This document shows positions 3,625 to 64,000 of a stretch of DNA of 64,000 nt, piece by piece (the first letter of the stretch is position 1; each line of letters begins with the position of its first letter). The notes under the pieces were generated by a model. The model searched no databases. It worked only from the letters and a program-made list of their open reading frames with translations, and had not been told where the DNA came from. Source of the stretch: Odiellus spinosus (lineage: Eukaryota; Arthropoda; Arachnida; Opiliones; Phalangiidae); contig OY987231.1 of the NCBI GenBank assembly GCA_963920705.1, forward strand, positions 21,739,024 through 21,803,023, in the 5' to 3' direction. A program made the translations under genes and the position numbers.

Positions 3625-3910
3625 CAGAAGCCGATGAAACCCTCCTTTGAAGTCTATTACTCCCGAGTCTTGTGTACCCCTCTCTGTATGGGTTAGTTTC
3701 AAAAAGCGCGATTCGTACGCCTCCTAACGGTAGATATTTTCGGAGCGGAAGTTCGTCGAGCTAATATCTCTAGCAGCCTTGGAGTTCGTCAAAAAACGTC
3801 GTATTTTGTGGAGAGAGAGAATTTCCAATTTTCCGTAGACAAGGGGGTATGAAGTAGGACCCCTCCGATCTCGTAAAATTGAGAATTTTACCAATACAGA
3901 GAGGAACGCC
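3625..3910 (+). mobile_element. Family A MITE, copy 1, 3'-truncated
   Basis: The left terminus CAGAAGCCGATGAAACCC and the family interior are present. The copy stops matching just after the subterminal CCAATACAGAGAGGAACGCC block, so the right TIR is lost and no TSD can be scored. The left flank is TCTATGA. Confidence 0.85.
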
Positions 3911-9724: not shown

Positions 9725-9731
9725 GTAATAC

Positions 9732-10061
9732 CAGAAGTAGATGAAACCCTCCTTTGAAGTCTATTACTCCCTGGTGTTGTCTACCCCCTCTCTGTATGGG
9801 TTAGTTTCAAAAAAACGCCTCCTAACGGTAGATATTTTCGGAGCGGGAGTTCGTCGAGCGAATATCTCTAGCAGCCTTGGAGTTCGTCAAAAAAACATCG
9901 TCGTTTTGTGGAGAAAGAGAATTTCCAATTTTCCGTAGACAGGGGGGTATGAAGTAGGACCCCTCCGATCTCGTAAAATTGAGAATTTTAGCCATACAGA
10001 GAGGAGCGCTATATCGAACATAAGAGTAGTAGACTTCAAAGGAGGGTTTCATCTACTTCTG
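9732..10061 (+). mobile_element. Family A MITE, copy 2 (TAG-end subtype)
   Basis: This is a complete 330-bp copy. Both termini read CAGAAGTAGATGAAACCC, so it has TAG where most copies have CCG. It is flanked by a perfect 7-bp duplication GTAATAC (9725-9731 and 10062-10068). The interior carries the family's GC-richer core with GGAGCGGGAGTTCGTCGAGC. No transposase is encoded; the open frames across the element are by-products of its sequence. Confidence 0.93.
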
Positions 10062-10074
10062 GTAATACTTAAAA

Positions 10075-12177: not shown

Positions 12178-13504
12178 CATGGACACCTTAATAGATAAAA
12201 TATGAATAACATAAGGGTATACTCTAACGGCAAACAGTGCAGGCAAAAGAATTGGGCTTTTGTAGTCCATTCGTCTTTTAAAACGAAATTATTTTAATCA
12301 TAGAATGTAATTTATCTTTAATATTAATATTTAGTCTGGAAAACAAAACATTTAATTCTGTCGTACGAGTTTGTATATACAGAGGTGCTGGGGAAAAATT
12401 TGCGTAATAATTAATACGAAGGAAAAATTTAATAACGTACGCAAAATGCAATTAATTAGAGAAGCTCGTAGTCAATTAAGATTTCCATCAAACGATTTAT
12501 ACCAACGAGAAAGTAAAGAGGTAAAAAGAGAAAGCGTTAGTTAATTATAACGACTTAATCTATTACTCTTGGCGATAAATCCCATCTTTTCGTAAGATCT
12601 TCTTTGAAAGAAGAAAAAAAAAAAATGAGGAAAATGGATAAGGAAATAATTTTCCATCCCATTTTTACTCTTTTCCTCGATCCCTCCTCCACCCAAAAAT
12701 CCCTTAGTACCCCTTACCCAAATTTTTTTATACATACACAAAGTTATTTCCCGTCCTTTTTTTTTTTCTTTTTTACGTTCCTCAATTTTTGCATATTTTA
12801 TATAACGTTCCTTTAGAGTTTTTACCAATGGAAAGAAGGGGCCATAGGACGCGGCATTAGGAAAGAGGGGTAATTTTCGAGTTTTTGGACAAACTCCAAC
12901 ATCAGATAGAGTCGAAAAAGGGATCCACCCTTCCCCAACATCCGAATTTGAAAGATTAACAAGAGGGTTAAGTCAGAATTCTAACCTTCCGAAAAATGTT
13001 TTTGGGGTTTAATTTCGTAGGACTATTATAACAATGTAGACCTATCATAATAGCAGAAGCCGATGAAACCCTCCTTTGAAGTCTACTACTCCAATGTTCC
13101 ATAAAGCGCTCCTCTCTGTATGGGTAAAATTCCCAATTTTACGAGTTAGAAGGGGTCCTACTTCATCCCCCCCTGTCTACGGAAAATTGGAAATTCTCTC
13201 TCTCCACAAACGACGACGTTTTTGGACGAACTCCAAGGTTGCTAGAGATATTCGCTGGACGAACTCCCGCTCCGAAAACATCTACCGTTAGGAGGCGTAC
13301 GAATCGCGCCTTTTGAGAATAACCCATACAGAGAGGGGTAGACAAGACCAGGGAGTAATAGACTTCAAAGGAGGGTTTCATCGGCTTCTGATAGCAGCCA
13401 CGCACGAGATTTTGTTAGTTACCACTGTTTGCCGTTAGAGGACGCGTATGAACGCCATGTTTAGTTATTCATCTTTATCAAATATGATAGGTGTCCATTG
13501 TTAA
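12178..13504. mobile_element. Family J element with long inverted ends, carrying an A insertion
   Basis: The left end (12178-12246: ATGGACACCTTAATAGATAA through CTCTAACGGCAAACAGTG) is mirrored at the right (13413-13504: CACTGTTTGCCGTTAGAG through GGTGTCCATTGTTAA). The arms are about 70-90 bp and imperfect. The 1.3 kb between them holds AT-rich DNA, poly-A/T tracts and family A copy 3. No transposase is recognised; the open frames near 12541-12828 are low-complexity. An alternative reading is two unrelated J copies in opposite orientation. Confidence 0.6.
13054..13390 (-). mobile_element. Family A MITE, copy 3
   Basis: This complete 337-bp copy is in reverse orientation and lies inside the larger J-ended segment 12178-13504. 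Both TIRs are CAGAAGCCGATGAAACCC. Flanking heptamers ATAATAG and ATAGCAG match at five of seven positions and differ by two transitions, which fits a decayed 7-bp duplication. Confidence 0.9.
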
Positions 13505-14490: not shown

Positions 14491-14953
14491 CAGGGAGACC
14501 ACTTTTCCTATATTTCCTATTTTTCCTATATTTTCACCTCCTTCCTATTTTCTCCTATAATTTGATATTAATTCCTATAATCTCCTATATTTCTACTCAA
14601 AATCTCTAGTTAAGGGTAAAGTTCTAAATCATACTGTCAGCCGTGGCTGTATAAGATTATTTTAGCTTAACTGTACATTTACCAGGTAAAATAGTCTGTA
14701 AAATTCCATACTATATAAGCAATTGGATCATATTAATACCGTGTTTAAACCGGTGGTGAGAGTTGTGATGCAATAATAAACATGGTTCCTACTTTTAATT
14801 AATTATTTTCCTATTTTATCATATATTTTACACTTATTTCTTCCTATTTTATCCTATATTTTACATAAAATTCTTCCTATATTCTCCTATATTTCGCAAT
14901 GAAATTTCCTATATTTCCTATATAGGATTTTCAAATTTTCAGTGGTCACCCTG
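14491..14953 (+). mobile_element. Family D element, copy 1, with 6-bp TSD
   Basis: Termini CAGGGAGACCACT and AGTGGTCACCCTG form a 13-bp inverted repeat with one mismatch. The perfect 6-bp duplication TTTAAT flanks it (14485-14490 and 14954-14959). The interior is rich in CCTATATTT units. A 6-bp duplication is known for IS3EU-type and some other DNA transposons, so the superfamily is left open. Confidence 0.9.
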
Positions 14954-16437: not shown

Positions 16438-16444
16438 CTTTTAC

Positions 16445-16781
16445 CAGAAGCCGATGAAACCCTCCTTTGAAGTCTATTACTCCCGGGTCTTGTCTACCCC
16501 TCTCTGTATGGGCTATTCTCAAAAGGCCAGATTCGTACGCCTCCTAACGGTAGATGTTTTCGGAGCGGGAGCTCGTCGAGCGAATATCTCTAGCAACCTC
16601 GGAGTTCGTCCAAAAACGTCGTCGTTTGTGGAGAGAGAGAATTTCCAATTTTCCGTAGACAGGGGGGGATGAAGTAGGACCCCTTCTAACTCGTAAAATT
16701 GTGAATTTTACCCATACAGAGAGGAGCGCTATATGGAACATTGGAGTAGTAGACTTCAAAGGAGGGTTTCATCGGCTTCTG
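16445..16781 (+). mobile_element. Family A MITE, copy 4 (reference copy)
   Basis: This complete 337-bp copy has a perfect 7-bp duplication CTTTTAC on both sides. The TIR matches for 39 bp with one mismatch. A second inverted block, CTCTCTGTATGGGT, follows on each side, separated from the TIR by unmatched sequence, so the arms extend to about 65 bp. Confidence 0.95.
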
Positions 16782-16788
16782 CTTTTAC

Positions 16789-18005
16789 TGATAAATTTAT
16801 ATTTTTTCTGACGATAAAATATAGGCTACCATTGATATATACTTGCCAAATTACTTTAAAATCTAGTTGTTATTTTAAAAAAAATATATACACACATATT
16901 ATTAATCTCAGTGAAAATAAATTAGTCAGAATTCAAGTGTAGCAATATTATTTTGATGAATTTGGGGAAGGTTAAAGAAGATCATGGCTTGTTTCCGACT
17001 GTGAGCGTAATATTATGGGTTTTAAAATCGCTAAATCGCTGTATATTTTGATATATGTTTTGTGGTTGATTGCCTCGAATCTCGAAATCAGGGTAACGTC
17101 ATTTAAGCGAGGAAAACTTAATTTTCCGTTGAAGTACCCAAAAAGACTGAGTTTAAGAATACACGATTAAGTTCAAAATTTGAAATTAATTTTTCCTTAT
17201 ATTTCATTACACAAATCCCTTTATTTAGAAAGAGGGAATATAATTTCAAAGCTATCTATAGCAATTATATCAATATATTTAAAATATACTTAAGATATTT
17301 ACGCTGCAAAACCAGGATCTTTCGCTTCTTTCTTAGCTTTAGTTGAAAAGGAACAAAACCGGGTTGAATTTGAAAAAACAACTAGGCATAGAATGCTTTT
17401 TTTTTTTCTTTCGTAGTCCCGAAACACCTGCGAAAGTAACAGTACGGCTTTAAAAGACGGAAATCTGACGACACTCGGACCCAAATGTGAAAAATCGAGA
17501 GAATACGTTTGGTTTTCGAGATAGAAAGAGAGAGAGAAAGGAAATAAAATGTTTGAATTTATTGTTTTTGGGGGTAGACTCGTGGAAAAATAATGATTTT
17601 AAATATTAGACGATATAAATCATGAACTGTTTCGGGGCGAAACTTTTCGGGGATATTAAGCTCATTCTCCTCCCCATTTTTCCCTCGTGAAATATGGTTC
17701 CTCGAGTCTCTCTTTCGACGAAGTTTGGTTATTTTGTAGCAGGGAGTTGTTTTCGTAAATGGTATATGGTTTTCTACCCCAAGAGGGTTTAAATCTAATA
17801 TTCCTAAATTTAAGTATAGAATGGCGATATACGTAAAATATAAATTATACACCAACAACAGAATCAAAGAACTAGAAAATTTTAATTTTAATCGAAAAAT
17901 TTAGTTTCTCTATGGCGTATTTTTAATTAGAAATGAGTAATAAATAAATTAAATAAGCTACATTTTAATCCTTTGTATCATTCGATGTTAATTTTAACTA
18001 GTTCC
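16789..18005. other. No gene seen
   Basis: This is AT-rich unique sequence. The 102-codon reverse frame 17559-17867 has no recognisable motif. Confidence 0.55.
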
Positions 18006-18036
18006 TTATACTTTGCAATCTAACAACAAGTTTGCC

Positions 18037-18456
18037 CAGAAGTATATAATAACCTCCTTCGGGGGGAAGTATGAAAGGTAGGCAAAATCGACGAACAACA
18101 AGTGCCCGGCGTAAATCGCGGCGGATCGACACACCGCTTTACTCCCAAAAAATAGTTACACCATTTTGAACCTCACTAAATTTTCCCTACGCGCACTTCC
18201 GGAACTCGCGAGCTGAAGTCAACCTTCGACTCCAATTTAACAGACAGCCTGACTCCCGAGACAGGAAGTTCTAAACGCAAATCGAGCCGTTTTGTTTATA
18301 CAAAGAACATTTACTATAGAGTAGCGACATTGAGAAGTCCAGCGCGAGCTAGTGGCCTAGATAGTCAGCAGCGGGCTCTTGTTGTTCGTGATTTTTAGCA
18401 TTGGTAGTATAGGGGCTTTCATACTTCCCCCCGAAGGGGGTTATTATATACCTCTG
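18037..18456 (+). mobile_element. Family C MITE, copy 1, with 7-bp TSD
   Basis: This 420-bp element has 41-bp TIRs that begin CAGARGTATATAATAACC and contain their own C-rich/G-rich hairpin (CCCCCTTCGGGGGG). The perfect 7-bp duplication GTTTGCC flanks it (18030-18036 and 18457-18463). The interior is GC-richer than its surroundings and non-coding. It includes CGCACTTCCGGAACTCGCG. The host site is itself a family B MITE. Confidence 0.95.
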
Positions 18457-18474
18457 GTTTGCCTAATCCACCAG

Positions 18475-18652
18475 TAGAGGTCGGGGTTTGAACAAGATAA
18501 TTTCCGTTTGTTTTATCTTTATTCATAATCTGAAATTCTTCGCGGGAAGTCTATGATAAATGCAATGTAATCGCGAATATTTAACTGATTATTATTAATA
18601 ATTAACTGATTAACCTAATATTTCTGGATAATCTTGCCCAAATCCCGACCTA
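18475..18652 (+). mobile_element. Family N MITE, copy 1
   Basis: This 178-bp element starts TAGAGGTCGGGGTTTGAAC and ends AAATCCCGACCTA. It is flanked by a 10-bp direct repeat AATCCACCAG. It matches the element at 52096 through TTTTATCTTTATTCATAA and AAGTCTATGATAAA. It sits inside a family B element, 18 bp after C1. Confidence 0.9.
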
Positions 18653-20154: not shown

Positions 20155-21265
20155 TTATGTGATTAATTCGTTTTTTAATTTAAATTGTGTTAATGTAAGC
20201 TGTAATTAGTTGAATTTTAAGATTTCTGTAACTGTTTCTTCTCTCCCAAATAATATCGTCCAATCTCCCGATCCTGGCCCCTTCTCCTTCCATATGGTTT
20301 GTTTGTTCATATATACAGACCCCGTCGCCATCGCCGCCATCGTGAAAGGTCCGAGGGCGTAATATCGGGGAGCGGGGTAATCCCGCGTGTCATGTTCTAA
20401 GTTACAGGCTGTAGTCATATTGCTCGAATTGGCAAATATTGTTTGAACCCCGGCGATGACCTTTTAGGAATTCGGTAATCCGTTTGGCAGTGCCCTTAAC
20501 GATCCTACTATAGTTTTCCCCGTTCCTTGGCAGTCTCTCCGAATCCCCATCATCCCGCTTTATCGGATTTCATTATATTGATCAACATAATAAAGTAAAT
20601 ATACTGAGAATAGATCCTCCCGTCCATAATCCCGCGCTCTCTTTACTTACCGTTACTGCGTCTATAGGCGCGTTACATCATCGGATGCGCGCGTGGGAAA
20701 ATTCGCTTCCTCTAACTTGATTTGGTTCGCTCGCATCCTGCAGCTTCGTAAGGCGTTATTCCCTAATTCTACAAGTATAATTCTACAAGTATACGATTCT
20801 AGTTAAAAACTAGACTTTCCTTATCAGAATTTTTCGAGGTTTCCCCGCCCCCCCTACAATGAAAACTTTCAAATTATTCTACTTTTCCGGACGGGTTTAA
20901 GAGCCAAAAATTCCAGTCAGTTACTCAGTTCCGCACTAATATCTAGCGCTTCTTTTGACCCCCCGAATTGCGGAGGAAAAATCGTTAATTCGGAGTAGAA
21001 TTTTTCTCTTTTTCGGGTAAAGTGGTGGTGGGAGGGGGAGTTTCATTCGTTTTGTACTATTCTTCGTAGCCATTCCGATCATATACATAAATTCCTCAAT
21101 TTCTTGAATTTCTATCTCTATACATCCAATTATTTATTATAATTGAATATAAGAATAATTCTGAATTAGCCATGTTATAAGTATTATTGCAAAACTTTTC
21201 GTAATTTCAGAAATTTGACGTATTTCTTATATTCTAAAGAAAATCCTACAATTTCCATTTACCTT
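20155..21265. other. No gene seen
   Basis: It contains a GC-richer patch at 20260-20420 and C-rich runs near 20850. Frames are 70 codons or fewer and unrecognised. Confidence 0.55.
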
Positions 21266-21610
21266 ATTAATTTCTTCTATTTTTTAGCATATCATAATTA
21301 ATTTCTTCTATTTTTTAGCATATCTTAATTAATTTCTTCTATTTTTTAGCATATCTTAATTAATTTCTTCTATTTTTTAGCATATCTTAATTAATTTCTT
21401 CTATTTTTTAGCATATCTCAATTAATTTCTATTTTTTAGCATATCTCAATTAATTTCTATTTTTTAGCATATCTTAATTAATTTCTATTTTTTAGCATAT
21501 CTTAATTAATTTCTTCTATTTTTTAGCATATCTTAATTAATTTCTTCTATTTTTTAGCATATCTTAATTAATTTCTTCTATTTTTTAACAAATCTTAATT
21601 TCTATTTTAC
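21266..21610 (+). repeat. 31-bp tandem array with acceptor-like units
   Basis: Eleven units follow the pattern TTAATTTCTTCTATTTTTTAG + CATATC. Ten keep TTTTTTAG and the last has TTTTTTAAC. Three consecutive units (near 21437, 21465 and 21493) lack the same TTC, giving a 28-bp period, so a variant unit was itself amplified. Each unit looks like a polypyrimidine tract followed by AG. Confidence 0.96.
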
Positions 21611-22400
21611 TTCATGGGTATAATATCATGTATTGTTTATTTCAAAAGCATTCTGGGATTTCGAACTAACTTTTATAATATATTTAATATAATAACCATG
21701 GCCGTAAAGTTGTGTAGAATATAATTGAGCAATAAGTTAGTCTGCGTTTCATGGCTTCTCTGAAATATTTTACAATTCAATTATATTGAAATTAAGCTTA
21801 TTTGATTTAATTTTGAATAGAAGATAAGTTTATTCATAATCATTTTAGTCTATTATTAACTCTTGTTAAATAAAATCATTATATAGAGTTAGGAGGGCTA
21901 GTTAATTCCATATCCATTGTGTAAACTCGAAGTAGCTTGCATAAATCAAGACGGAATAGATTTTAATGTCTGAAAATTCCAGACTAAATTAAGTGGTACT
22001 ATTATGGCGAGAAATTATATCTCTTTCATAATTGGATCTACAATAAACACTCTTAAGTGATTTTACAAAATAGTGCGCTAACTTTCGGCGGATTGATACA
22101 CTATGTTAAACCTCATTATAATAATAATAATTATTAATTAGTTGTAGGTATATATTTAAATTAAATTTGTCATCGACAAAGGGGTCTTTTTGAAGTAAAC
22201 CTGAAAATATTTTCAGAGCCTCAACATTGATAATTAACCGCGAATTATAACGAAACATTTGACGAGTTTTGTTAATGTTTTTACGTACATTTTAACAGAC
22301 TAACTCAATTAAAAATAACTTCCTAAGCTCAGTATTACTTTAAAAATAATTTAAAAATACTTGCTGGGTCGGATTTATACATAATCTTAAATCTCATTTT
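21611..22400. other. No gene seen; one short dispersed word
   Basis: GGCGGATTGATACACTATG followed by TTAAACC at 22090-22115 recurs with changes at 30083-30112 and 36801-36829, suggesting remnants of a dispersed repeat. Confidence 0.5.
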
Positions 22401-31006: not shown

Positions 31007-31790
31007 TTGAACTAGTAGAAATAAAGTCATGGAATTTGAGTAGAAAAAAGTCAGTGGATTTTGTTATTGAGTAGGAAAAAGTCATGGTTTTCGTTATTCA
31101 GAAGACATGGGATTTTTTATTGGGTAGAAATAAACTCGGGGGAGTTTTATTGAGTAGAAATAAAGTCAAGGGATTTGCTATTGAATAGAAATAAAGTCAG
31201 GGATTTTTTATTGAGTAGAAATAAAGTCATGGGATTTTTTATTGAATAGAAATAAAGTCAGGGAAGTTGTTATTGAGTAGAAATAAAGTCAAGGGATTTT
31301 TTATTGAATAGAAATAAAGTCAGGGGATTTTTTATTGAATAGAAATAAAGTCAGGGAAGTTGTTATTGAGTAAAAATAAAGTCAGGGAAGTTGTTATTGA
31401 GTAGAAATAAAGTCATGGGATTTTTTATTGAGTAGAAATAAAGTCATGGGATTTTTTATTGAGTAGAAATAAAGTCATGTGATTTTTTTATTGGGTAGAA
31501 ATAAAGGCATAGGATTTTTAATTGAGTAGAAATAAAGTCAGGGGATTTTTTATTGAGTAGAAATAAAGTCAGGGGATTTTTATTGAATAGAAATAATGTC
31601 AGTGAATGTTTTATTGAGTAGAAATACAGTCATGTGATTTTTTATTGGGTAGAAATAAAGGCATAGGATTTTTTATTGAGTAGAAATAAAGTGAGGATAT
31701 TTGTTATATGTCATAAATAAAGCCAGTTAATTGGTTATCGGGCAAAAATGATGTCAGGGGATTGGCTATGGGTCAGAAATGAAGTCAAGG
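31007..31790 (+). repeat. Minisatellite, ~31-bp unit, about 25 copies
   Basis: Tandem units of the form GTAGAAATAAAGTCAGGG + GATTTTTTATTGA make up this array. Units vary at CAGGG/CATGG/CAAGG and in the length of the T run. Both edges decay gradually, with AGTAGAAATAAAGTCATGG at the start and GTCAGGGGATTGGCTATGGG at the end. It shares the AAGTCAGGG core with the arrays at 8.7 and 52 kb. Confidence 0.95.
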
Positions 31791-33186
31791 GATATGAAAT
31801 TGAGTCTGGCAATATTAGAAAATTATGTAATTAGTCAGGAAAGATTAGTGTAATTTGGTTTTAAAAATATTTCTTACCCCTCAATAACATCCAAACTTAA
31901 AAATGTAAATTTCAGAGGCGCCTAATAATTTTATAAGCTTCTTTAGAGCATAAAGATTTGAAATGTTACGTGTTAGAACAATGGCATTCCGTTAATTGAA
32001 TCAGTTCTGAATAATTTGGTAGAATAGTGTAAAACGTGTCTTAATTTATTTGAGATACAAATATAGAATAAAAGGTTTAAACGCCTATAATTTGTGTGAA
32101 ATATCACCTTTATATAAGTCTAGAAAAAAATCTCTACGGTACTACAAGGAAGATAAAAATGTTTTCGATAAAAAAACATCTAGACTAAAATATTAGTGCC
32201 ATTATTTTCGAAGCATTAAACAATTGGCGGGCCTCTGTTTAGCACGTAATTCGAGCAAGTCATTAGCGATTAATCATAGTTGCGGCTCTTTACCCCTCCC
32301 ACTCGCTAGAAATAATAAAAAAAAAATGTTTGCTAATACGAACAGCTCGAGGAAAAGGGCATCTGAAAATAACCTTCGTTTTACTAAATTTAAGGGTTAT
32401 CATTCTTCGTTAAGACCCTAGCTAAAAAAATGGGGGGCCGCGATGGCTGCCAAGTTAGCTCTTTAACAGTACCGCCCTTCCACTCTCTCTCAGAGATAGG
32501 GAGAGAGAAAGAGAGGTCGTCGGAATAAAAAATGAAATAAAAAAAGATTTCTTTTCCCCTTCGCCCTTTAATCTGCATATTCTAATCAGAGAAATACTTT
32601 TAAATCCTACCCCCCCCCCCCCAACCTTATTCCTGGGATAAAAAAGAAGCTGAACTTCGACTCGAAAACGATGAAAAAATTATATATATGCCTATACTTC
32701 TCTTCGTTTTAAATCTCATAAAGAAAAAATCTATTATTGCCTTTTTAAATATTTTTAAGAATTTATGAGGGTAATTTTAAATTAATTATATAGGTGGAAT
32801 GAAAATTAGGTTAATCCGTAGTTAGACCCATCGGTTTTTACTATTTTCAATATTTTTAATCAGTTCTTTATTAATTAAGGTAGTTAAATTTTCTTTAAAA
32901 AATAATTTTCATCATAATACCATGAATATCTTTTAATTTAAAAATGGATTATAATTTTAGTTTTATCAAACTATTAAAAAAAAACTAATCCCTTTTGTTA
33001 ATAAATCAATATAGATAATTAATTTTCATCTCTATAATATTCTAATAACTTTGTTGAATTAAATACCCTGATATGAACCCAAACATTCGGTACATATATT
33101 AGGCCAATGTTTTGAATAATCTGCCAAGATTATCAGGTTCGAGAAAATCTCTCAACCAAAGCAAAATGCGTTTAATTAAAACTTTA
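31791..33186. other. No gene seen
   Basis: This is AT-rich sequence with a C13 run at 32610 and a TC/GA-rich hairpin-like patch at 32487-32515. Confidence 0.55.
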
Positions 33187-33193
33187 GTTCTAC

Positions 33194-33530
33194 CAAAAGC
33201 CGATGAAACCCTCCTTAGAAGTCTACTACTCCAATGTTCCATATAGCGCTCCTCTCTGTATGGGTAAAATTCCCAATTTTACGAGTTAGAAGGGGTCCTA
33301 CTTCATCCCCCCTGTCTACGGAAAATTGGAAATTCTCTCTCTCCACAAACGACGACGTTTTTTGGACGAACTCCGAGGCTGCTAGAGATATTCGCTCGAC
33401 GAGCTCCCGCTCCGAAAACATCTACCGTTAGGAGGCGTACGAATCGCGCCTTTTGAGAATAACCCATACAGAGAGGGGTAGACAAGACCCGGGAGTAATA
33501 GACTTCAAAGGAGGGTTTCATCGGCTTCTG
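33194..33530 (-). mobile_element. Family A MITE, copy 5
   Basis: This complete 337-bp copy is in reverse orientation and flanked by a perfect 7-bp duplication GTTCTAC. The left end has a point change, CAAAAG for CAGAAG. The interior is nearly the same as copies 4 and 7. Confidence 0.95.
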
Positions 33531-34251
33531 GTTCTACGTCTATATAGAATCTCGTATTTCTAATTAATATCATTAATATCGTTATAAAACGCTCGCTTAC
33601 AAATTTAATAAATGGCGCTAATGATATATTCATTCCCACCACATTATTAAGGCAATTCGAATATCTCATTAGCCATACGTTACTGGATCGATTCTTAACT
33701 CAGCTTGTGTCGAGTTTAAAAATAGAGCATTGAACGTTCAACTTTAAGTAACGATTTTCAATACAAGTATAAAGGTAGCGATAATAAAAAAAAAAAAAAA
33801 ATACCCCAGGCTTCCGACAGAATTTTTTTTTTTTTTTTCTATTCTTCTCTCAAAAGGAAATAAAAAGTTTCGATCAGTCTGTCGTTTTAATGAAGTTCCT
33901 AATTGAGGGGATTATTTTTTTATCCTCGAACGGGGAATGATCTCTAATAGTTCTGAAGGGTATTATATACAATAGAATTGCGGGGCTACTAAGGAAAAAA
34001 ATAAAAGTTCTATCCAATTTATATTGTTGGATGAAACTCGAGTATATATAGAGATGAGTCTTTTGTGTTTATTGTGGATGGAAACTGAATCCGTCGGATT
34101 AAAGTGATGCCTATGGATTATATTTTTAGTTTTATTAAACTATTAAAACTCCTTTTTTTAAATTTTATATCTCTAGGTTGACTCGTTCTTAAGAAACTTG
34201 TCAAAAATGAAAATGTCAAAAATATATTGAATTTTTGTTTATTTTTGGAAC

Positions 34252-38175: not shown

Positions 38176-38182
38176 ATTAAAA

Positions 38183-38521
38183 CAGAAGCCGATGAAACCC
38201 TCCTTTGAAGTCTATTACTCCCGGATCTTGTCTACCCCTCTCTGTATGGGTTCGTTTCAAAAAGCGCGATTCGTACGCCTCCTAACGGTAGATATTTTCG
38301 GAGCGGGAGTTCGTCGAGAGAATATCTCTAGCAGCCTTGGAGTTCGTCAAAAAAAAACGTCGGCGTTTGTGGAGAGAGAGAATTTCCAATTTTCCGTAGG
38401 CAGGGGGTATGAAGTAGGACCCCTCCGATCTCGTAAAATTGGGAATTTAACCCATACAGAGAGGAGCGCTATATCGAACATTAGAGTAGTAGACTTCAAA
38501 GGAGGGTTTCATCGGCTTCTG
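38183..38521 (+). mobile_element. Family A MITE, copy 6
   Basis: This complete copy is 339 bp long. The flanks ATTAAAA and ATTAAAT form a 7-bp duplication with one mismatch. A poly-A expansion lies in the core near 38348. Confidence 0.92.
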
Positions 38522-38528
38522 ATTAAAT

Positions 38529-39949
38529 ATATATATTTGTGATCTAGTTAGATGTCGAATATTAGGCATGAAATTAGATTGAAAAAGGTCGAAAAGGTTT
38601 TAATTTTGTTGCCTATAAATTGTGATATAAAATTCTTAATTATAAAGGGACTATTTCGCGATACTTGAGGTAAAAAGTTAATTACTTACCGTAACTAAAA
38701 TTAATATCGTATTTTTATATTTATAATTAATTGAATTTTAGGTCAAATTTATTCATTTCTTTTTTTGAATCGTCAGAAAATCCTAAAATTAGATAAACCA
38801 TTTAACTATAATTTCAAACTTACAAATAACTAACTAATAATTTTAACTAACGATTAATTTGAAATTTCTGCTGACTCGAATAAGATAAAGGCACTTTTTT
38901 TAAAAGTACAAAATAATAAATTATTTAAATTACACAAAATATTGAATAAAATAAATTTAATTACCATAATTAAAATATCCCTAAAATTATATTTATAATT
39001 ATTTGAATATTAGTAATACTTCGAAATGAGTTTTAATTTTAACTCTAAACAATTAATCTATTAAATCTATTTAAATTTAGAATTTCATCTCTCCTAATTC
39101 CAATTTTTTTCCACTTGCTACAATTTCACACTGTATTCTCCACCATTTTTCACACCATTGCCAAGTTATCGCGTTTTTTGACGCTGTTTTTTTTCCTCTT
39201 GCCTCTCTACAACGTCGAACGACAGTTTAGAGTTCGAAAACATAGTGTTCCCAATAATTTTGGTCGGCTATCATCTTCCGATAATATTGTTCGCCCGATA
39301 ACCCTTTTGCCGTTTTATATCGAGAAGCTAAAAAAACTCCAACAAAAACTATCAACATTAAGGAAATCGAAATAGTAATAAAAATAAAACTCAGACGGTG
39401 AGGGGTCGATTTAAACAACTCTTGGTTGAAAAAAAAAAAATCGCTGAAATGGGATGGGATCGAGGTTTGGCCTCGTTCGTATATCGTTTATTTAAAGCAT
39501 TGTTCACACTAAAGAAGAATTTAATAATCCTAGGTTTTCACGTTATTAAAGTCAGGCTTTCACGGAATTTCCACGAAATTCAAATGGAAATTGAGTAGCA
39601 TTTTCGATATTCTCGAAAATACGCGTGCGCTTTTAAAATACCAGCTAAATAATTATGTTTTATCATTGAGTATACGTTTATTAATGTAGATTAAGGGGTC
39701 ATCCGCGCATGATACATTTCGCAACTCTTAAACGGCGCCCCGTACGACAAAACGTCATAGAAGATTTTCGTCTTAAAATGAGAACCCACTGTAGCTCGGT
39801 CCTACCACCATTTTCGAAACACTCTGTATATATTGATAGAATATCGAACTGGTGTGAACACGGCTTTTGAGATCAACGTAAGGTTACGATTCATTCTTAG
39901 AAGATAGTAAAGAAGCCCTTACTTAAAACTGGCCATCTAGTATAGCGCC
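38529..39949. other. No gene seen
   Basis: This is strongly AT-rich. Overlapping frames near 39115-39598 are short and unrecognised. Confidence 0.55.
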
Positions 39950-41729: not shown

Positions 41730-42259
41730 CAGGGTGGCCACTTTTCCTATATTTCCTATTTTTTCCTATATTTTCACCTCCTTCCTATTTTCTCCTATAA
41801 TTTAATGGCAATTCCTATAATCTCCTATATTTCTACTCAAAATCTCTAGTTAAGGGTAAAGTTCTAAATCATACCGTCAGCTGTGGCTGTATAAGATTAT
41901 TTTAGCTTAACTGTACATTTTCCAGTTAAAATAGTCTGTAAAATTCCATACTATTTAAGCAATTGGATCATATTAATTCCACGTTTAAACCGGTGGCGAG
42001 AGTTGTGACGCGATAATAAACATGGTTCCTACTTTTAATTAATTATTTTCTTATTTTATCCTATATTTTCCACTTATTTCTTCCTATTTTATCATATATT
42101 TTCCACTTATTTTTTCCTATTTTATCATATATTTTCCACTTATTTTTTCCAATTTTATCCCATATTTTACATAAAATTCTTCCTATATTTTCCTATATTT
42201 CGTAAAGAAATTTCCTATATTTCCTATATAGTTTTTTCAAATTTTCAGTGGTCACCCTG
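41730..42259 (+). mobile_element. Family D element, copy 2, with 6-bp TSD
   Basis: CAGGGTGGCCACT and AGTGGTCACCCTG are the ends, flanked by the perfect 6-bp duplication CGAATA. The middle (GTCTGTAAAATTCCATACTA) closely matches copy 1. The element is about 67 bp longer because a CCTATTTTATCATATATTT unit is repeated at 42050-42165. Confidence 0.92.
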
Positions 42260-42265
42260 CGAATA

Positions 42266-43571
42266 TAGGTATATAAACATAACACATTTACTTATTACAA
42301 TGAAAAAACAACAATCATTATAAAAAAACCTTTCGAAAATCGGATAAATGTACAACATGTTATTTAACTGACGAATATAGACTATTTTTTTCAACTTTTT
42401 CGTTCTATCCTAACTCCAAATCGCGAATTTATTGTACATAACCGCCGAAAACATTTTGTTTTCTTTTTTTACATAGGGCCTAGTTGAAACCCATTACGTT
42501 ATACAGATATACTAAAAAGCGTATATAGAAAAAATGATCTGAAATCCGTATATACCGCGGCCTTTGCAATCCTGTCCAAATAGGCCCAACTTTTGTAAGA
42601 GTCTTTCAAATCATTAGATACGTTGGAATCTCTAGTCCCTTTATATCGAAACCCCTAGGGGTTTAGAGGGAAAATGGTATAGCCATCCCGCTAGTCCCGC
42701 TTCCCAAAGACACGTCAAAAAATATCAAAAAACGCCATTAGGTGATGCGCGCTTCTTTTTTTCCGTTACAAGCATCTTCCCTGCCTTTTTTCTCTCTTTC
42801 GCTCTCGAGCAACTCGTACACATACCGGGACCTTCAGGACATTCCTAGTTTCGATCGGATTCAACTTTATGAACTGCGCGCCGAATCCAGCTAGTCGTCA
42901 ACTATAAGACGCGAGCTATGCCTCTTCTACTTCCTCAAACTGCCAAAAATCCTCACCAAGGCCTAACGTGTACTTTCTATATACGTTCCCCTATACTGGC
43001 GGCGTTCTTCTTCCGTGTAATCTTTTCCACTTTGATTTGACAGCGCGTACAACACTACGCTATCCTTTATCTCTATAATTGTTTGACTGGAGATAAACGT
43101 GGTCAATGACTTTTTCAGTGTTGTAAAACCAATGTGGATTATAGAGTATATCGAGAATTTGGCGATCCCACGTTTTTTTTTTCCGGGAAACTTTATTTTT
43201 TTTTTTCGATTTTTGCTACACCATGGTTCAATATGACTATTCGCGCCTTTTTTAGTTCCTAGTGTAAACATGTTGTAACTCAATGTTCTATCGTGCTCAT
43301 CAAAGTAATAAGATTTTTAAACAATTTTGTGAAAAATCCCGAGGGCGGTTGATCACTCCACATAATTGTTGTACAAATCTGAATGTATGTGAGGTTAATT
43401 TGAAAATCTTATGTTAAATTTTATTTTAATTGACCATAAGATGCGGATCTTTTCTATTTGGGAATATTGTTTCATCCATGGAGAAATGAAAATTAGAGAC
43501 GTTAAACACAATCTTACTACCCAATAAAAGGGTTAGGTCTTGATCCTTTTCATTATTCAAAACCTTACTAC
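42266..43571. other. No gene seen
   Basis: Apart from the 16-bp palindrome at 42652, the sequence is unique. The 106-codon reverse frame at 42963-43283 is lysine-rich and unrecognised. Confidence 0.5.
42652..42667. repeat. Perfect 16-bp palindrome
   Basis: AAACCCCTAGGGGTTT is fully self-complementary and stands alone in unique sequence. Confidence 0.85.
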
Positions 43572-43578
43572 GATTAAG

Positions 43579-43915
43579 CAGAAGCCGATAAAACCCTCCT
43601 TGGAAGTCTTCTACTCCAATGTTCCATATAGCGCTCCTCTCTGTAGGGGTAAAATTCCCAATTTTACGAGTTAGAAGGGGTCCTACTTCATCCCCCCTGT
43701 CTACGGAAAATTGGACATTCTCTCTCTCCACAAACGACGACGTTTTTTGGACGAACTCCTAGGCTGCTAGAGATATTCGCTCGACGAGCTACCGCTCCGA
43801 AAACATCTACCGTTAGGAGGCGTACGAATCGCGCCTTTTGAGAATAACCCATACAGTGAGGGGTAGACAAGACCCGGGTGTAATAGACTTCAAAGGAGGG
43901 TTTCATCGGCTTCTG
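43579..43915 (-). mobile_element. Family A MITE, copy 7
   Basis: This complete 337-bp copy is in reverse orientation with a perfect 7-bp duplication GATTAAG. The left TIR has a few substitutions (GATAAAACCC and CCTTGG), while the right TIR is intact. Confidence 0.95.
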
Positions 43916-43922
43916 GATTAAG

Positions 43923-45323
43923 TTGATAAAACCCTCAAATTGTTTAAATAAATTCTATCTGGGAATTTTTAACATTAGATCATTATTTGGTTTTTGCCTA
44001 TTAATTACCGTAATTTTGGAAATTGGTAAATTACGTGGTAATTTACAGGTATTTACAAAATTATTTGTAATTTCTGTTATTGTTTTAAACGCGGAATTCC
44101 TCACCCAATCGCATAATTCCTTATTTCTGATATAAAACAGCACATTACAGTCACGAAAAATGATACGCTGTACCATTTGACTTTGCATTGATAGGCCAAA
44201 GTGACTTAGACACGAAACATTACATTAACATGTTCTTAACGATGCCAAACACGAATAACTACTTGTAAATTATTTTAAACGTTAAACTTTAGCCTTTTAT
44301 GCAATTTGTTCACTTTTAATTCAAAAATTTTGAAATTATAATTTTACGTTTTGATAAATTTACCAGAGAAAACCGTAAATAACTAGGGGGTAAATTACCG
44401 ATTTCGAACTCTATAGGTAAAAATAAAACCAATATTCCGGTAAAACTTTAGTTATGACACATTCGCGTTCAGATACTGAACTTCTCCCTATTGTAACGTG
44501 TACCATTCGTACCGCACGAACAAAGCCAATTTTACCAAAGTTTAGCCGGCTTTGTTTTCGAATCTCTTTATATCCTCTTTTCCTTTATTCCGGCCGTTAT
44601 CCAGTACTGATTCCTTTTGACATGATAGCTTGAAAAGGAGGATTTTTGTAGCACGGTTACCATATACAAATGGGTGATTTTTTTTTCCCTCTAACTCTCT
44701 TTTGTCGGGTTGAAATGACTATGGGGTTCTCTCGCTATAACTATCTGGCACGCTTCTTGGTGCCTTCACTCCCTCGTATCAACCACACCCTGGCTTTAAC
44801 ACACCCCCTAGCGGAGGGTGGGGCGGATAATGCACAGTTTTAAAGTATAGATACGGGCTGCTTTCTCTAGCGTTAGTATAGTTGATTCGTGTCGGAGTAA
44901 ATCCCGTCTTCGGCCACCACGTCAAGAGAAAAATATATATCGTTTATCGCAACATCGGAAAGGGACCAAAATCTCCGTATAAAACTATGGCTGTCAAGTT
45001 TGAAATTGTTCCTTTCCAAGTCTGCGCGAAATTATACTCGCAATCAGTTGAAATCTTCAGCGGGTATAATTCTTCTATTTTATTTCTACGTATTGTTTTA
45101 ATATAGATGTATAAGGAAACTTAGCTTTGTACGTAATGAATATTCGCATTGTTTCGGATAAAGTTCAGAAATGTGGAACAGAGAAAGAGAGAGAGAATAT
45201 GTTGGTTCGTTTTACGGAATTATTTAGAAAACAAACCAGGCGAGGATTTGTAAAGCACCACGCTGACGAGCTTTTTTTTTAAAGGCTAAGTCTAATTTTT
45301 TGTTACGTGGTATTGTAATAAAA
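43923..45323. other. No gene seen
   Basis: This is unique AT-rich sequence between family A copies 7 and 8, with a GA-rich patch near 45181-45198. Confidence 0.55.
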
Positions 45324-45330
45324 CTACTAC

Positions 45331-45654
45331 CAGAAGCCGATGAAACCCTCCTTTGAAGTCTATTACTCCCGGGTCTTTTCTACCCCTCTCTGTATGGGTT
45401 ATTCTCAAAAGGCGCGATTCGTACGCCTCCTAACGGTAGATGTTTTCGGAGCGGGAATATCTCTAGCAGCCTTGGAGTTCGTCCAAAAAACGTCGTCGTT
45501 CGTGGAGAGAGAGAATTTCCAATTTTCCGTAGACAGGGGGGATGAAGTAGGACCCCTTCTAACTCGTAAAATTGGGAATTTTACCCATACAGAGAGGAGC
45601 GCTATATGGAACATTGGAGTAGTAGACTTCAAAGGAGGGTTTCATCGGCTTCTG
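45331..45654 (+). mobile_element. Family A MITE, copy 8, 13-bp core deletion
   Basis: This 324-bp copy has a perfect 7-bp duplication CTACTAC. Relative to copy 4 it lacks 13 bp (AGCTCGTCGAGCG) in the core. The deleted segment contains a short palindrome and is bordered by GCG-type microhomology, which suggests slippage or a repair deletion. Confidence 0.95.
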
Positions 45655-45737
45655 CTACTACTGAGTTATAAGATTATTCCTAAATCAATTCATAAATAAA
45701 TAGCTAAGAATTTTTAACCTTGATTAAAGATAAGTCT

Positions 45738-52059: not shown

Positions 52060-52440
52060 AAGATTTGCAAAGGTCAGGGGAAATTCAGTCAGGGATAGAG
52101 ATCGGGGTTTGTACAAGAAAATTTCTGATTATTTTATCTTTATTCATAACTTAAAAATTTTCCAGGAAAGTCTATGATAAACCCAATGTAATCGCGAATA
52201 ATTTTCCGATTAATTTTTAATGATTAACTGATTAACTGATAGTTGTGGATTATTTTGTTAAAACCCCGATCTCTAGTCAGAGAATTTAAAAAAATGATTA
52301 TTAAAGGTCAAGGGAAATTAAGTCAGGGAGATGATTTCACGGAAGGTAGAGAAATATATTTTAAGCATTTCATATTTGAAAATGCGGCTAAAGGAAAGAT
52401 CGATTATCAGGGATTATCTGTATGAAGCAGGGAATTAAAA
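52060..52440 (+). repeat. AGTCAGGG-type degenerate minisatellite interrupted by N2
   Basis: Loose units AAAGGTCAGGGGAAATTCAG, AAAGGTCAAGGGAAATTAAG and ATCAGGGATTATC occur on both sides of the N element at 52096-52275. The array is old and partly scrambled. Confidence 0.75.
52096..52275 (+). mobile_element. Family N MITE, copy 2
   Basis: This 180-bp element has perfect 15-bp TIRs (TAGAGATCGGGGTTT and AAACCCCGATCTCTA). Flanks GTCAGGGA and GTCAGAGA form an 8-bp duplication with one mismatch, taken from the AGTCAGGGA unit of the host minisatellite. Confidence 0.92.
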
Positions 52441-55560: not shown

Positions 55561-55567
55561 ATTATAC

Positions 55568-55834
55568 CAGAAGCCGATGAAACCCTCCTTTGAAGCCTAT
55601 TACTCCCGGGTCTTGTCTACCCCTCTCTGTATGGGTTAGTTTCAAAAGCCTCGGAGTTCGGCAAAAAATTGTCGTCGTTTGTGGAGAGAGAGAATTTCCA
55701 ATTTTCCCTAGACAGGGGGGTATGAAGTAGGACCCCTTCTAACTCGTAAAATTGTGAATTTTACCCATACAGAGAGGAGCGTTATATCGAACATTAGAGT
55801 AGTAGACTTCAAAGGAGGGTTTCATCTACTTCTG
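55568..55834 (+). mobile_element. Family A MITE, copy 9, internally deleted with mixed ends
   Basis: This 267-bp copy has a perfect 7-bp duplication ATTATAC. About 70 bp of the core are missing between GGTTAGTTTCAAAAG and CCTCGGAGTTCG. The left TIR is the CCG subtype and the right TIR is the TAG subtype. Confidence 0.94.
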
Positions 55835-55841
55835 ATTATAC

Positions 55842-60692: not shown

Positions 60693-62634
60693 TCTATTGA
60701 AAATGTTAGTTTGGTTTTGGGTTAGGTTTGATTAAGGTATAATCTATGGGATTTTAACACGAAAATTTCCGATGATTGGAGAATATAATTAGTATTATTT
60801 CTGATCTCACGAGGTCCTAATTAGTCGAAACCTTCGCTATTTGGTGGGAGTTCGGTTATGGGAACTTTGCCCTTAAGTTAGCCAGATATTTCTGAAGACC
60901 ACTTCGTTAATTTAGAATAGAATCCATAATTTAATGTGACTAGCTGACACGTAAAATATATTGGTGGAGAGTTCTTTTGAGCCTTATTGGGGCGCCTTTT
61001 CACTGGGTTCTCGTGTAGCAGCATCTTAGGAATTCCTCTAGCTCTCTTCGGGCATCGAGGCAGGCAACTGCGCCGCGTCAATTCCCGGGTTATCTATCAT
61101 TTTAACGCAATTTTCGGATTTTTCCTATTCTTTCTCCTTGACGCGCTAAGGAAATCCGTAATGGCATTGAAATGCTCGCCTATTTCAAAGCTACTTTGCG
61201 TTGGGTTGATGCCCGTCAGAACCGCTTTCTTGTACTTATAAAGGAACTCGTTAGGCCTAAGACGGAACGTTGCCCCCTTCTGTTTTTCCGTGGAATTTAA
61301 CTCGTAAGGAATCCGTCTTCCGAAAGAAAAAAAAATGCAAAAGCGAGAGAGAGAGAGAAAAAAAATTGCACCTTTTTTTTTAAGTAATCATAGAGGATGG
61401 TCGTATATTCTCAAGATGAAAGTGGTATATCTTTTTATGTCAGTTATTTTAAGTTTTCAAGCTTAAAAAGTTAAAAATATTTCCTTTATTTTTAAGATGA
61501 GTTCTGTTCTCGGGGCTTCTCTGGGTCAGGAAAAATCTGTATAAAGAGCCAATGAATTTTAAAATTAAGCCATGGGAGTAGTGAAAAATAAGGGATTATA
61601 AAATTGAGTGTATTATAATTAATAATGTGTTAAAAAAGAACATTTTAAATAATCACGCAACCTGCACTCGATTCGGGCATGATGATTCCAATACACCTGA
61701 AAAACAAATCCTTTGAAATATTCTAACGGCCTCAGTCTAATTTGCCGGGAAATATATGAGGAAGGGAACGCTTGATTGGCTGATTTTTGTCTTGCGCAAA
61801 GACTGATTTTTGAGTTTGGAAAAAAAAAACGTGTATCTGTCTTCTGCTATAGATGGTCTGTAACATTTCCAAACTCCTACGGCGATTTCGGTAATATCTA
61901 TATTATTTTATTGATTAATAGATATTACATCTCAGAACCTAATATTATCGTGATTTAGGTTATTACTAGTAACTATTTATTAACACAACAAACAGAACCT
62001 CCTTTAACACTCATCTTCAGTTGATAAAAGAAACTTTAATGTAATCTTTTAAGATTATTTACTTCTATAATAGCGTCTTAGATATCGTCTAGGCCTAGTT
62101 CATGTAGTTTTAGAAAAATTAGCAGACTACATAATATAGCCAATAAAATAATAGAACTATCTCTAAATCCTTAACCCTTCTCTAGATGGCACTGCGGTTT
62201 GTTCTGCTAATCACGTGACCTCTTGGTTTATCCCTTCCTCTTTACACGCGGCCACCCATCTTGTTTATTTGTTTTTCAGGTGTATAGGTCCAAGTTTCCC
62301 TTTAAAAAAACCCATTTCTTATCAGATAACTATATTTATCTTAGAACCGGAACAAAAATTTTATTATATTATATTTTGTTTTGATAAAATATCTTACAAT
62401 AATATACATCATATTATAAAACTTTTGGAATTTTGCGAAACCAGTTCCTGTTCAGACGATATTGTACGTGTATTAGAGAATTGTCATATCTATAGAGCGC
62501 CGCTGGCCTCTTTCCAAACTCGTTTTATTTCGAGTTTGGATAACCCTGAGAATACTTTATTGGTAACTTTGTCACGGTCTTGACTTCCGCGATAGAGAGA
62601 GAGGCGGATCGAGAACGAGACTGAGAAGTAATAT
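60693..62634. other. Region upstream of tRNA-Trp; no secure gene
   Basis: A 122-codon forward frame (62215-62583) ends 51 nt before the tRNA and crosses an acceptor-like tract TTTATTTGTTTTTCAG. It has no known motif. A GA run lies at 61345-61362, and degenerate GTCAGGAAAAATC words appear near 61525. Confidence 0.5.
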
Positions 62635-62706
62635 GGCTCGGTGGCGCAATGGTAGCGCGTTTGACTCCAGATCAAAAGGCTGCGTGTTCGAATCACGTCC
62701 GGGTCA
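62635..62706 (+). tRNA. tRNA-Trp (anticodon CCA)
   Basis: This intronless nuclear tRNA gene decodes UGG as tryptophan. The 72-nt sequence folds as a full cloverleaf. The 7-bp acceptor stem pairs GGCTCGG with CCGGGTC, with two G-U wobbles. The D arm pairs GCGC with GCGC. The anticodon stem TTTGA/TCAAA encloses the loop CTCCAGA, giving anticodon CCA at 62667-62669. The T stem surrounds TTCGAAT, and A at 62706 is the discriminator. The internal RNA polymerase III promoter is visible: an A box near 62642-62652 (TGGCGCAATGG) and a B box near 62685-62695 (TGTTCGAATCA). A T5 run follows at 62719. CCA is not encoded, as expected for a nuclear gene. From general knowledge, the D arm, anticodon arm and T arm closely resemble animal tRNA-Trp. 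The gene stands alone, with no neighbouring tRNA seen. Confidence 0.97.
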
Positions 62707-62718
62707 AGAAAATAATTA

Positions 62719-63366: not shown

Positions 63367-63551
63367 TTTTCTTTAAATTGATTCTAAGTCTACACAATAA
63401 TGGTTTGAGTAGTTAATTTTTTAGTATTTGTCTCTGATTTGAACCAAAAATCTTAAATATAGTGGGTTTTTTTTTGGCAATTTATCCTCCAATCAAATCG
63501 GACCAATCGCAAGATTGCTTTGACAATCGCATTGATTTCTATCCCCAACAC

Positions 63552-63970
63552 CAGAGGTATATAATAACCCCCTTCGGGGGGAAGTATGAAAGGTAGGCAA
63601 AATCGACGAACAACGAGTGCCCGGCGTAAATCGCGGCGGATCGACACACCGCTTTACTCCCAAAAAATAGTTACACTATTTTGAACCTCACTAAATTTTC
63701 CCTACGCGCACTTCCGGAACTCGCGAGCTGAAGTCAACCTTCGACTCCATTTTAACAGACAGCCTGACTTCCGAGACAGGAAGTTCTAATCACAAATCGA
63801 GTCGTCTTGTTTATACAAAGACCATTTAGTAGAGTAGCGACATTGAGAAGTCCAGCGCGAGCTAGTGGCCTAGATAGTCAGCAGCGGGCTCTTGTTGTTC
63901 GTGATTTTTAGCATTGGTAGTATAGGGGCTTTCAAACTTCCCCCCGGAAGGGGGTTATTATATACCTCTG
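63552..63970 (+). mobile_element. Family C MITE, copy 2, with 7-bp TSD
   Basis: This 419-bp copy is almost the same as the one at 18037, although 45 kb apart. The perfect 7-bp duplication CCAACAC flanks it (63545-63551 and 63971-63977). Its right TIR has one inserted base and one substitution relative to the left TIR. Confidence 0.95.
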
Positions 63971-64000
63971 CCAACACCGATTCCGACGAAAGTCTCACCG

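What the first reader, a model, noticed from the sequence alone, without database searches (positions are those of the whole stretch)
16438..18463. Families A and C share CAGA(A/G)G ends and an exact 7-bp target duplication
Six family A copies have perfect 7-bp duplications (GTAATAC, CTTTTAC, GTTCTAC, GATTAAG, CTACTAC, ATTATAC). Two more A copies have imperfect ones, and both C copies have perfect ones (GTTTGCC, CCAACAC). The interiors and most of the TIRs differ. Shared outer bases plus a fixed 7-bp stagger imply a common transposase. Seven bp is an uncommon size: hAT and P are usually 8 bp, and Dada is reported at 6-7 bp. This may be an uncharacterised lineage. No source element lies in this window.
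Basis: partly seen in the sequence, partly recalled or inferred. Interest (0 to 1): 0.72.

Follow-up and report, generated by a model that had tools for sequence, protein, structure and literature searches.

The report
P-element-like MITEs with 7-bp duplications
Two families of short, apparently gene-less jumping DNA in this genome copy seven bases of the host at each landing site and prefer the same kind of site as known relatives of the fruit-fly P element, so they are probably ordinary passengers of P-type transposases rather than a new kind of element.

Summary
The window holds 8 full family A copies (267-339 bp) and 2 family C copies (419-420 bp); 6 A and both C have exact 7-bp duplications, the other two A copies have 1 and 2 mismatches. 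In 250 kb sampled elsewhere in the same genome, 6 of 6 A and 1 of 2 C copies are exact, the other C having one mismatch. None of the 18 fits 8 bp.

Seven bp does not mark an unknown lineage. 1360 and Galileo, both P superfamily, make 7-bp duplications at palindromic GTTNAAC/GTANTAC sites. A's sites fit far above chance; C's three exact sites fit GTANTAC only modestly. TIR length and inner inverted repeats at bp 55-79 also resemble P/Galileo anatomy.

A and C belong to a larger set: 27 CA-ended, 7-bp elements of at least seven TIR types in 314 kb; an empty site proves the duplication for one of them. A common transposase for A and C is not shown. No transposase was found, and the whole-genome search did not complete. 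Verdict: P-type (1360/Galileo-like) MITEs, new members of a known kind.

The parts
16438..16788 (+). Family A copy (element 16445-16781, 337 bp) with exact 7-bp target duplication CTTTTAC at 16438-16444 and 16782-16788
18030..18463 (+). Family C copy (element 18037-18456, 420 bp) with exact 7-bp duplication GTTTGCC
63545..63977 (+). Family C copy (element 63552-63970, 419 bp) with exact 7-bp duplication CCAACAC
9725..10068 (+). Family A copy (9732-10061, 330 bp) with exact duplication GTAATAC
13047..13397 (-). Family A copy (13054-13390, 337 bp), imperfect duplication ATAATAG/ATAGCAG
33187..33537 (-). Family A copy (33194-33530, 337 bp), exact duplication GTTCTAC; one end CAAAAG
38176..38528 (+). 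Family A copy (38183-38521, 339 bp), duplication with one mismatch ATTAAAA/ATTAAAT
43572..43922 (-). Family A copy (43579-43915, 337 bp), exact duplication GATTAAG
45324..45661 (+). Family A copy (45331-45654, 324 bp, small internal deletion), exact duplication CTACTAC
55561..55841 (+). Family A copy (55568-55834, 267 bp, internal deletion), exact duplication ATTATAC
3625..3909 (+). Family A copy with a recognised left end only; the BLAST match stops at element base 285 of 337
16499..16512 (+). Left inner inverted repeat of A (CCTCTCTGTATGGG, element bp 55-68), overlapping the THAP-consensus match TATGGGCT that starts at element bp 63
16711..16724 (-). Right inner inverted repeat of A (same 14-mer, bp 58-71 from the right end), overlapping TATGGGTA that starts at bp 66
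18091..18102 (+). Left inner inverted repeat of C (ACGAACAACAAG, element bp 55-66)
18378..18389 (-). Right inner inverted repeat of C (same 12-mer, bp 68-79 from the right end)

Best explanation
A and C are MITEs (short non-autonomous cut-and-paste DNA transposons) moved in trans by transposases of the P superfamily of the 1360/Galileo type. SHOWN: TIRs of about 38-42 bp, CA termini, no recognised transposase in the window, exact 7-bp target duplications in 15 of 18 copies, a palindromic GTNNNAC target preference (strong for A, modest for C), and an inner inverted repeat near bp 55-79 from each end. INFERRED: a P-type transposase with a THAP domain binds the inner repeats, pairs and cuts the ends, and joins them to the target with a 7-bp stagger; host repair of the gaps gives the duplication. 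INFERRED: A and C probably use related but different transposases, because neither their inner repeats nor their TIRs match beyond CAGARG.
For: Exact 7-bp duplication in 12 of 14 A and 3 of 4 C full copies, 0 of 18 with 8 bp. Target motif: the 12 exact A sites score 35 of 48 for GTNNNAC against 12.0 expected and 47 of 72 for GTANTAC against 19.8 (0 of 100000 draws each); the 3 exact C sites score 7 of 12 against 3.0 (1000 of 100000) and 10 of 18 for GTANTAC against 4.9 (634 of 100000). The 10 window sites score 38 for GTANTAC at the duplication frame, at most 25 at any other offset within 20 bases; 7 newly sampled sites (6 A, 1 C) give 24 of 42, 1 of 100000 draws. Over 17 symmetrised sites the A-G-T half-site (A 18, G 17, T 29 of 34) resembles the ANAGT reported for P and 1360 (PMC4168063, passages). 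Published 7-bp P-superfamily elements: 1360, Galileo. P-superfamily TIRs other than Galileo's are given as 30-50 bp (PMC3688188, passages); the ends of A and C match inverted over 38-39 and 41-42 bp in BLAST, 31-36 and 28-38 bp by a stricter count of the 15 exact copies. Inner repeats at bp 55-71 (A) and 55-79 (C) sit where Galileo's THAP footprint (+63 to +80) and P's sites (53-63, 41-51) lie (PMC3688188 sections 12 and 13). A has a match to the THAP consensus TXXGGGX(A/T) (quoted in PMC3464256, passages) at bp 63-66 in 15 of 16 window ends. Seven CA-ended TIR types share the 7-bp duplication; for one of them, D, empty paralogous sites show a single copy of the 7-mer.
Against: No P transposase was found: none among 145 window ORFs or the 102 sampled ORFs scanned (102 of 164 of 90 aa or more in the first 200 kb, the last 50 kb not scanned); whole-genome search did not complete. 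Family C has no THAP-consensus match in its inner repeat, only a reverse-strand one at bp 40-41 of its right ends, and its sites do not fit the 1360 motif well (8 of 18, 9232 of 100000 draws). Position -3 of the target is mostly T (18 of 34, A 9) where Galileo and P/1360 motifs have A. The zebrafish P element Pdre2 has 13-bp TIRs and 8-bp duplications (PMC10983969, passages), so TIR length is not a firm mark. CAGAGG ends also resemble hAT ends (recalled). hobo (hAT) prefers GTNCGNAC, so the target motif alone does not separate P from hAT. The THAP motif in A is one family-level observation, about 3% likely by chance in a 15-bp repeat (my estimate from 1.95 matches per kb per strand).
Confidence: 0.8

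Rival explanations
1. A and C are hAT MITEs of a lineage with an unusual 7-bp stagger.
For: CAGAGG at C ends resembles hAT-type ends (recalled); hobo shares the outer GT...AC target bases; hAT transposase sequence exists in this genome (L004:7430-9840).
Against: hAT elements are described with 8-bp duplications and TIRs of 10-25 bp (PMC3942097, passages; hobo 99.83% of 1198 at 8 bp). Elements with hAT-like ends (CAAGG..., TAGAG...; label recalled) and exact 8-bp duplications do occur in this DNA, six picked from the 8-bp scan; being selected for 8 bp they give no rate. A ends (CAGAA) do not fit YARNG (recalled).
Confidence: 0.12
2. A and C share one transposase of an uncharacterised superfamily.
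For: Shared CAGARG and 7-bp stagger; no source element found.
Against: P-superfamily precedents explain stagger and target. Other 7-bp types here start CAAGGA/CAAGAA, CATGGG, CATGGA, CACAAG, so CAGARG is not the class mark. A/C similarity beyond it is at chance; inner repeats differ.
Confidence: 0.05
3. A and C are moved by one and the same P-type transposase (a narrower form of the best explanation, so its odds lie inside those).
For: Both start CAGARG and use 7 bp; Galileo subfamilies with almost identical terminal 40 bp are thought to share a transposase (PMC2775673, passages).
Against: Here only about 6 outer bases agree, against 40 in Galileo; inner repeats do not match.
Confidence: 0.25
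4. Dada-type elements (6-7 bp duplications).
For: Duplication size overlaps (PMC3706591, passages).
Against: Dada-U6 and Dada-U1 had no TIRs, and Dada with definable ends sat in small-RNA genes; A and C have long TIRs, and no window copy lies at the one tRNA hit, 62634-62707.
Confidence: 0.01

Closest known systems
1360 (Hoppel) of Drosophila, P superfamily
   Same: 7-bp duplication; palindromic GTTNAAC target, which A sites fit (45 of 72, 0 of 100000 draws) and C sites do not clearly fit.
   Different: TIR sequences were not compared (none found in the text I could read); host here is probably not Drosophila (inferred from contig count and sizes); only short copies seen.
Galileo of Drosophila, P superfamily
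   Same: 7-bp duplication, GTANTAC target; subterminal THAP site at +63 to +80, position matched by the inner repeats of A.
   Different: Galileo TIRs are 0.5-1.2 kb; here about 38-42 bp.
P-MITEs of Anopheles gambiae
   Same: Short P-derived MITEs; their masters have 27-31 bp TIRs (PMC1562414, passages).
   Different: 8-bp duplications there, 7 bp here.
hAT MITEs
   Same: CAGRG-type ends on C (recalled); outer GT...AC target bases as in hobo.
   Different: hAT gives 8-bp duplications and has shorter TIRs.

Membership tests
P superfamily | THAP plus RNase H-like transposase with GTP-binding insertion in an autonomous partner | tested here: inconclusive
   No P transposase in 145 window ORFs or 102 sampled ORFs; intron-split or decayed copies could be missed; whole-genome search unanswered in 25 tries.
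P superfamily | 7- or 8-bp target duplication | tested here: met
   12 of 14 A and 3 of 4 C exact 7 bp; precedents.
P superfamily | Palindromic GT...AC target | tested here: met
   GTNNNAC: A 0 of 100000 draws, C 1000 of 100000, the 12 other 7-bp elements 0 of 100000; shared in part with hobo, so not exclusive.
P superfamily | TIRs of about 30-50 bp, starting CA | tested here: met
   38-42 bp in BLAST, 31-36 (A) and 28-38 (C) by strict count. CA start seen for Pdre2 (whose TIRs are only 13 bp); for the Drosophila P element recalled.
P superfamily | Subterminal transposase (THAP) site about 40-80 bp from the end | tested here: inconclusive
   Inner inverted repeats at that place in A and C (0 of 2000 shuffles for three A copies and C1, 14 of 2000 for C2); THAP consensus in the repeat of A only. 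Binding not testable here.
Galileo | TIRs of 0.5-1.2 kb | tested here: not met
   About 38-42 bp; range.
1360 | TIR or transposase sequence of 1360 | not tested
   No 1360 sequence was at hand.
hAT | 8-bp target duplication | tested here: not met
   0 of 18 A and C copies.
hAT | TIRs of 10-25 bp | tested here: not met
   Longer in both families; range.
Dada | No TIRs; insertion into small-RNA genes | tested here: not met
   TIRs present; the one tRNA/Rfam hit in the window, 62634-62707, is not a copy's site; features.
MITE | Short, repeated, without transposase, TIRs and target duplications | tested here: met
   267-420 bp; no Pfam transposase match in window ORFs, including the frames of 110-125 aa that run through some A copies.

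The most novel reading that the evidence does not exclude
This genome, probably not a Drosophila, hosts a broad radiation of P-type elements with a 7-bp stagger: at least seven unrelated TIR types sharing only CA ends, 7-bp duplications and GTNNNAC targets, 19 such elements in the 250 kb sampled outside the window. That would make the 7-bp branch of the P superfamily old and diverse, rather than a feature of drosophilid 1360 and Galileo with 8 bp elsewhere.
Probability: 0.4. Interest if true: 0.5.

Novelty: new member of a known kind. Interest (0 to 1): 0.38.

Why it matters
It replaces a possible new superfamily with a testable P-type assignment. If the autonomous partners confirm it, transposases with 7-bp and 8-bp staggers could be compared inside one superfamily to ask what sets stagger length.

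Tried and rejected
Rejected: Dada (TIRs present, wrong targets). A new lineage on stagger alone (1360 and Galileo precedents). A/C kinship by TIR similarity beyond CAGARG (590 of 5000 shuffles and 1031 of 5000 random window segments reach the score). A source element in the window (145 stop-free ORFs of 66 aa or more; 12 Pfam families at E up to 0.05, best 0.004, none a transposase).

Led nowhere: TIR patterns in viral contigs (0 hits) and A TIR in genome contigs (0 hits; C not scanned there); blastn of A against plasmids (no match); paper searches with no listing. Empty sites: no usable one for an A or C copy. The span reported for C at L022 is the element's own right end; spans for L006:2880 (89%) and L012:4564 (74-77%) were not examined. 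A THAP hit (E 0.00018) lies in one of 20 sampled ORFs; by eye it is L002:4903-5286 minus, and I recognised no P transposase near it by eye. TIR sequences of 1360 or Galileo were not found in the text I read, so none was compared.

Limits: the class scan demands an exact duplication and 14 of 20 TIR matches and tested 12 of 16 end dinucleotides (not AA, AT, TT, CG), so the 12 non-A/C elements are exact by construction, as are the six 8-bp ones. Four of the seven TIR types are single copies. Totals whose rows I did not print: 6 bp, CA 18 and TA 53; 8 bp, TG 32. In the stricter scan many 6- and 8-bp rows are palindromes inside long inverted repeats. In one search the A copy at 43579 fell outside A by its label; one search corrects this. 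score the left copy of the duplication and include the imperfect ones. Motif counts cover the 8 window A copies, not the 6 sampled ones. L007 contains 3690 N. For Pfam I passed 102 of 164 sampled ORFs of 90 aa or more (24 lay below the printed list; I left out others, mostly overlapping ones), none from L022-L026.

Full report
Observation. The window carries 8 full copies of family A (267-339 bp), one more A left end at 3625, and 2 copies of family C (419-420 bp). Six A and both C copies have exact 7-bp duplications; the remaining two A copies have 1 and 2 mismatches. Three A copies (13054, 33194, 43579) lie in the other orientation. A scan for CAGRR ends with exact 7-bp direct repeats finds seven of these elements and one unrelated pair; 20 block shuffles find 0 or 1.

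Outside the window. The whole-genome search did not complete (25 calls), but stretches of the same genome could be taken: 250 kb in 25 pieces (3690 of these bases are N). BLAST finds 6 full A copies, all exact at 7 bp, and 2 full C copies, one exact and one with a single mismatch. In all, 12 of 14 A and 3 of 4 C full copies are exact at 7 bp and 0 of 18 at 8 bp.

Target choice. The duplicated 7-mers are not random. The 12 exact A sites score 35 of 48 for GTNNNAC against 12.0 expected, with 0 of 100000 background draws as high; the 3 exact C sites score 7 of 12 against 3.0 (1000 of 100000), 10 of 18 for GTANTAC (634 of 100000), and only 8 of 18 for GTTNAAC (9232 of 100000). For the 10 window sites GTANTAC scores 38 at the duplication frame against at most 25 at any other offset within 20 bases. 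Seven newly sampled sites repeat the preference, 24 of 42, 1 of 100000 draws. The motifs came from papers, not from these data. Flanking bases agree only in part: A at -1 as in P and 1360, but mostly T at -3, where the published motifs have A.

What makes 7-bp duplications. In D. melanogaster, 1360 gives 7 bp in 98.21% of 279 insertions with motif GTTNAAC, P gives 8 bp with GTCCGGAC, and hobo (hAT) gives 8 bp with GTNCGNAC (PMC3276498, passages). Galileo gives 7-bp duplications with consensus GTANTAC, and three D. willistoni copies have 8 (PMC4168063, passages; PMC2775673, passages). Both 1360 and Galileo belong to the P superfamily. So a 7-bp stagger with this palindrome is known, and P-type.

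Ends. The ends of A and C match each other inverted over 38-39 and 41-42 bp in BLAST (each family with itself), 31-36 and 28-38 bp by a stricter count of the 15 exact copies. P-superfamily TIRs other than Galileo's are given as 30-50 bp (PMC3688188, passages), though zebrafish Pdre2 has 13 (PMC10983969, passages); hAT's are given as 10-25 bp (PMC3942097, passages). Inside each TIR lies a second inverted repeat: CCTCTCTGTATGGG at bp 55-68 and 58-71 in A, ACGAACAACAAG at 55-66 and 68-79 in C1. Of 2000 shuffles none reaches it for three A copies or C1, and 14 do for C2, where the shared run is 9 bp. Galileo's THAP footprint lies at +63 to +80, and P's THAP sites at 53-63 and 41-51 (PMC3688188 sections 12 and 13). 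The A repeat carries a match to the THAP consensus TXXGGGX(A/T) (PMC3464256, passages) in 15 of 16 window ends; C has none in its repeat, only a reverse-strand match at bp 40-41 of its right ends. This motif match is weak evidence on its own.

A larger class. In 314 kb (window plus sample) 27 elements have CA ends, an exact 7-bp repeat and good TIRs, 8 in the window and 19 outside; ten other end pairs give 0 or 1 each at 7 bp, and TA ends give 11, 7 of them in one low-complexity stretch of L008. The 27 fall into at least seven TIR types: A (12), C (3), a CAAGGAGGATCAGA/CAAGAAGGATCAGA family D (8), and single copies starting CAAGAATAGA, CATGGGCCAA, CATGGATTAA and CACAAGTAAA. The 12 that are neither A nor C score 31 of 48 for GTNNNAC (0 of 100000 draws). 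One D copy (L003:9008-9287) sits inside another repeat whose empty paralogues (L003:4270-4569, L002:6651-6950) each match the joined flanks at 296 of 300 bases without gaps, with a single copy of ATTATAG: direct proof of the 7-bp duplication for a member of the class, not for A or C. Elements ending CAAGGTTAGTAAAG and TAGAG(A/G)TCGGGG in the same DNA show 8-bp duplications; I take them as hAT-like from their ends (recalled), and they were picked for 8 bp, so they show only that both sizes occur here.

Common transposase for A and C? Not shown. Beyond CAGARG the TIRs agree no better than shuffles (590 of 5000), the inner repeats differ, and the class as a whole shares only CA and 7 bp. Galileo subfamilies thought to share a transposase are almost identical over 40 terminal bases. 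Two related transposases are at least as likely (inference).

Mechanism, committed. P-type cut and paste in trans (confidence 0.8): THAP-domain binding to the inner repeats, pairing of the ends, excision, joining to a palindromic target with 7-bp stagger, gap repair. Shown: ends, duplications, target motif, inner repeats. Inferred: the enzyme and every step of the reaction. The missing piece is an autonomous partner; none was found in 145 window ORFs or 102 sampled ORFs, and none of the A or C TIR matches in the first 200 kb belongs to a longer element.

Host. Unnamed; an animal by inference (a THAP hit in the sample; THAP domains are said to be restricted to animals, PMC7776569, passages). 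Contigs are 35.4, 34.5, 29.4, 24.9, 20.4 and 23.7 Mb for C1, C2, C3, C5, C8 and C12, more large contigs than a Drosophila karyotype gives (recalled), so probably not Drosophila. In papers seen here, P elements outside drosophilids (Anopheles, zebrafish) have 8-bp duplications (PMC1562414; PMC10983969; passages only). A 7-bp P radiation in another animal would be a modest but real extension; whether it is already in print I cannot say, as my reading was limited to ten searches of one open library.

Noticed in passing
window 14491-14953 and 41730-42259: Two copies of a longer repeat with ends CAGGG(A/T)G(A/G)CCAC flanked by exact 6-bp matches (TTTAAT, CGAATA); the second has units spaced 33 bp near 42046-42259. 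Possibly hAT-like with degraded 8-bp duplications.
   Followed up: no
window about 18475-18652: Just right of the C copy lies a repeat with TAGAGGTCGGGGTTTG-type ends, apparently flanked by TCCACCAG on both sides (read by eye); a relative is at 52096-52272, and elements with such ends elsewhere have 8-bp duplications.
   Followed up: partly
window 38177-38539, 45322-45696, 43429-43758: Open frames of 110-125 aa run through or into three A copies; no Pfam family seen for window ORFs is a transposase. Probably chance.
   Followed up: partly
window 31052-31836 and 21213-21631: Two arrays of repeats spaced mostly 31 bp apart.
   Followed up: no
window 62634-62707: tRNA-Trp gene (anticodon cca), the only ARAGORN or Rfam gathering-score hit in the window.
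   Followed up: no
L006:1183-4734: Four copies of sister family D within 3.6 kb, each with its own 7-bp duplication.
   Followed up: partly
L004:7430-9840 (+) and L016:6503-8755 (-): hAT-type transposase ORFs (DUF4371, Dimer_Tnp_hAT) and a 751-aa protein with a DDE_Tnp_4 domain.
   Followed up: partly
L002:4903-5286 (-): Lone THAP-like exon (E 0.00018 for one of 20 ORFs, assigned by eye).
   Followed up: partly
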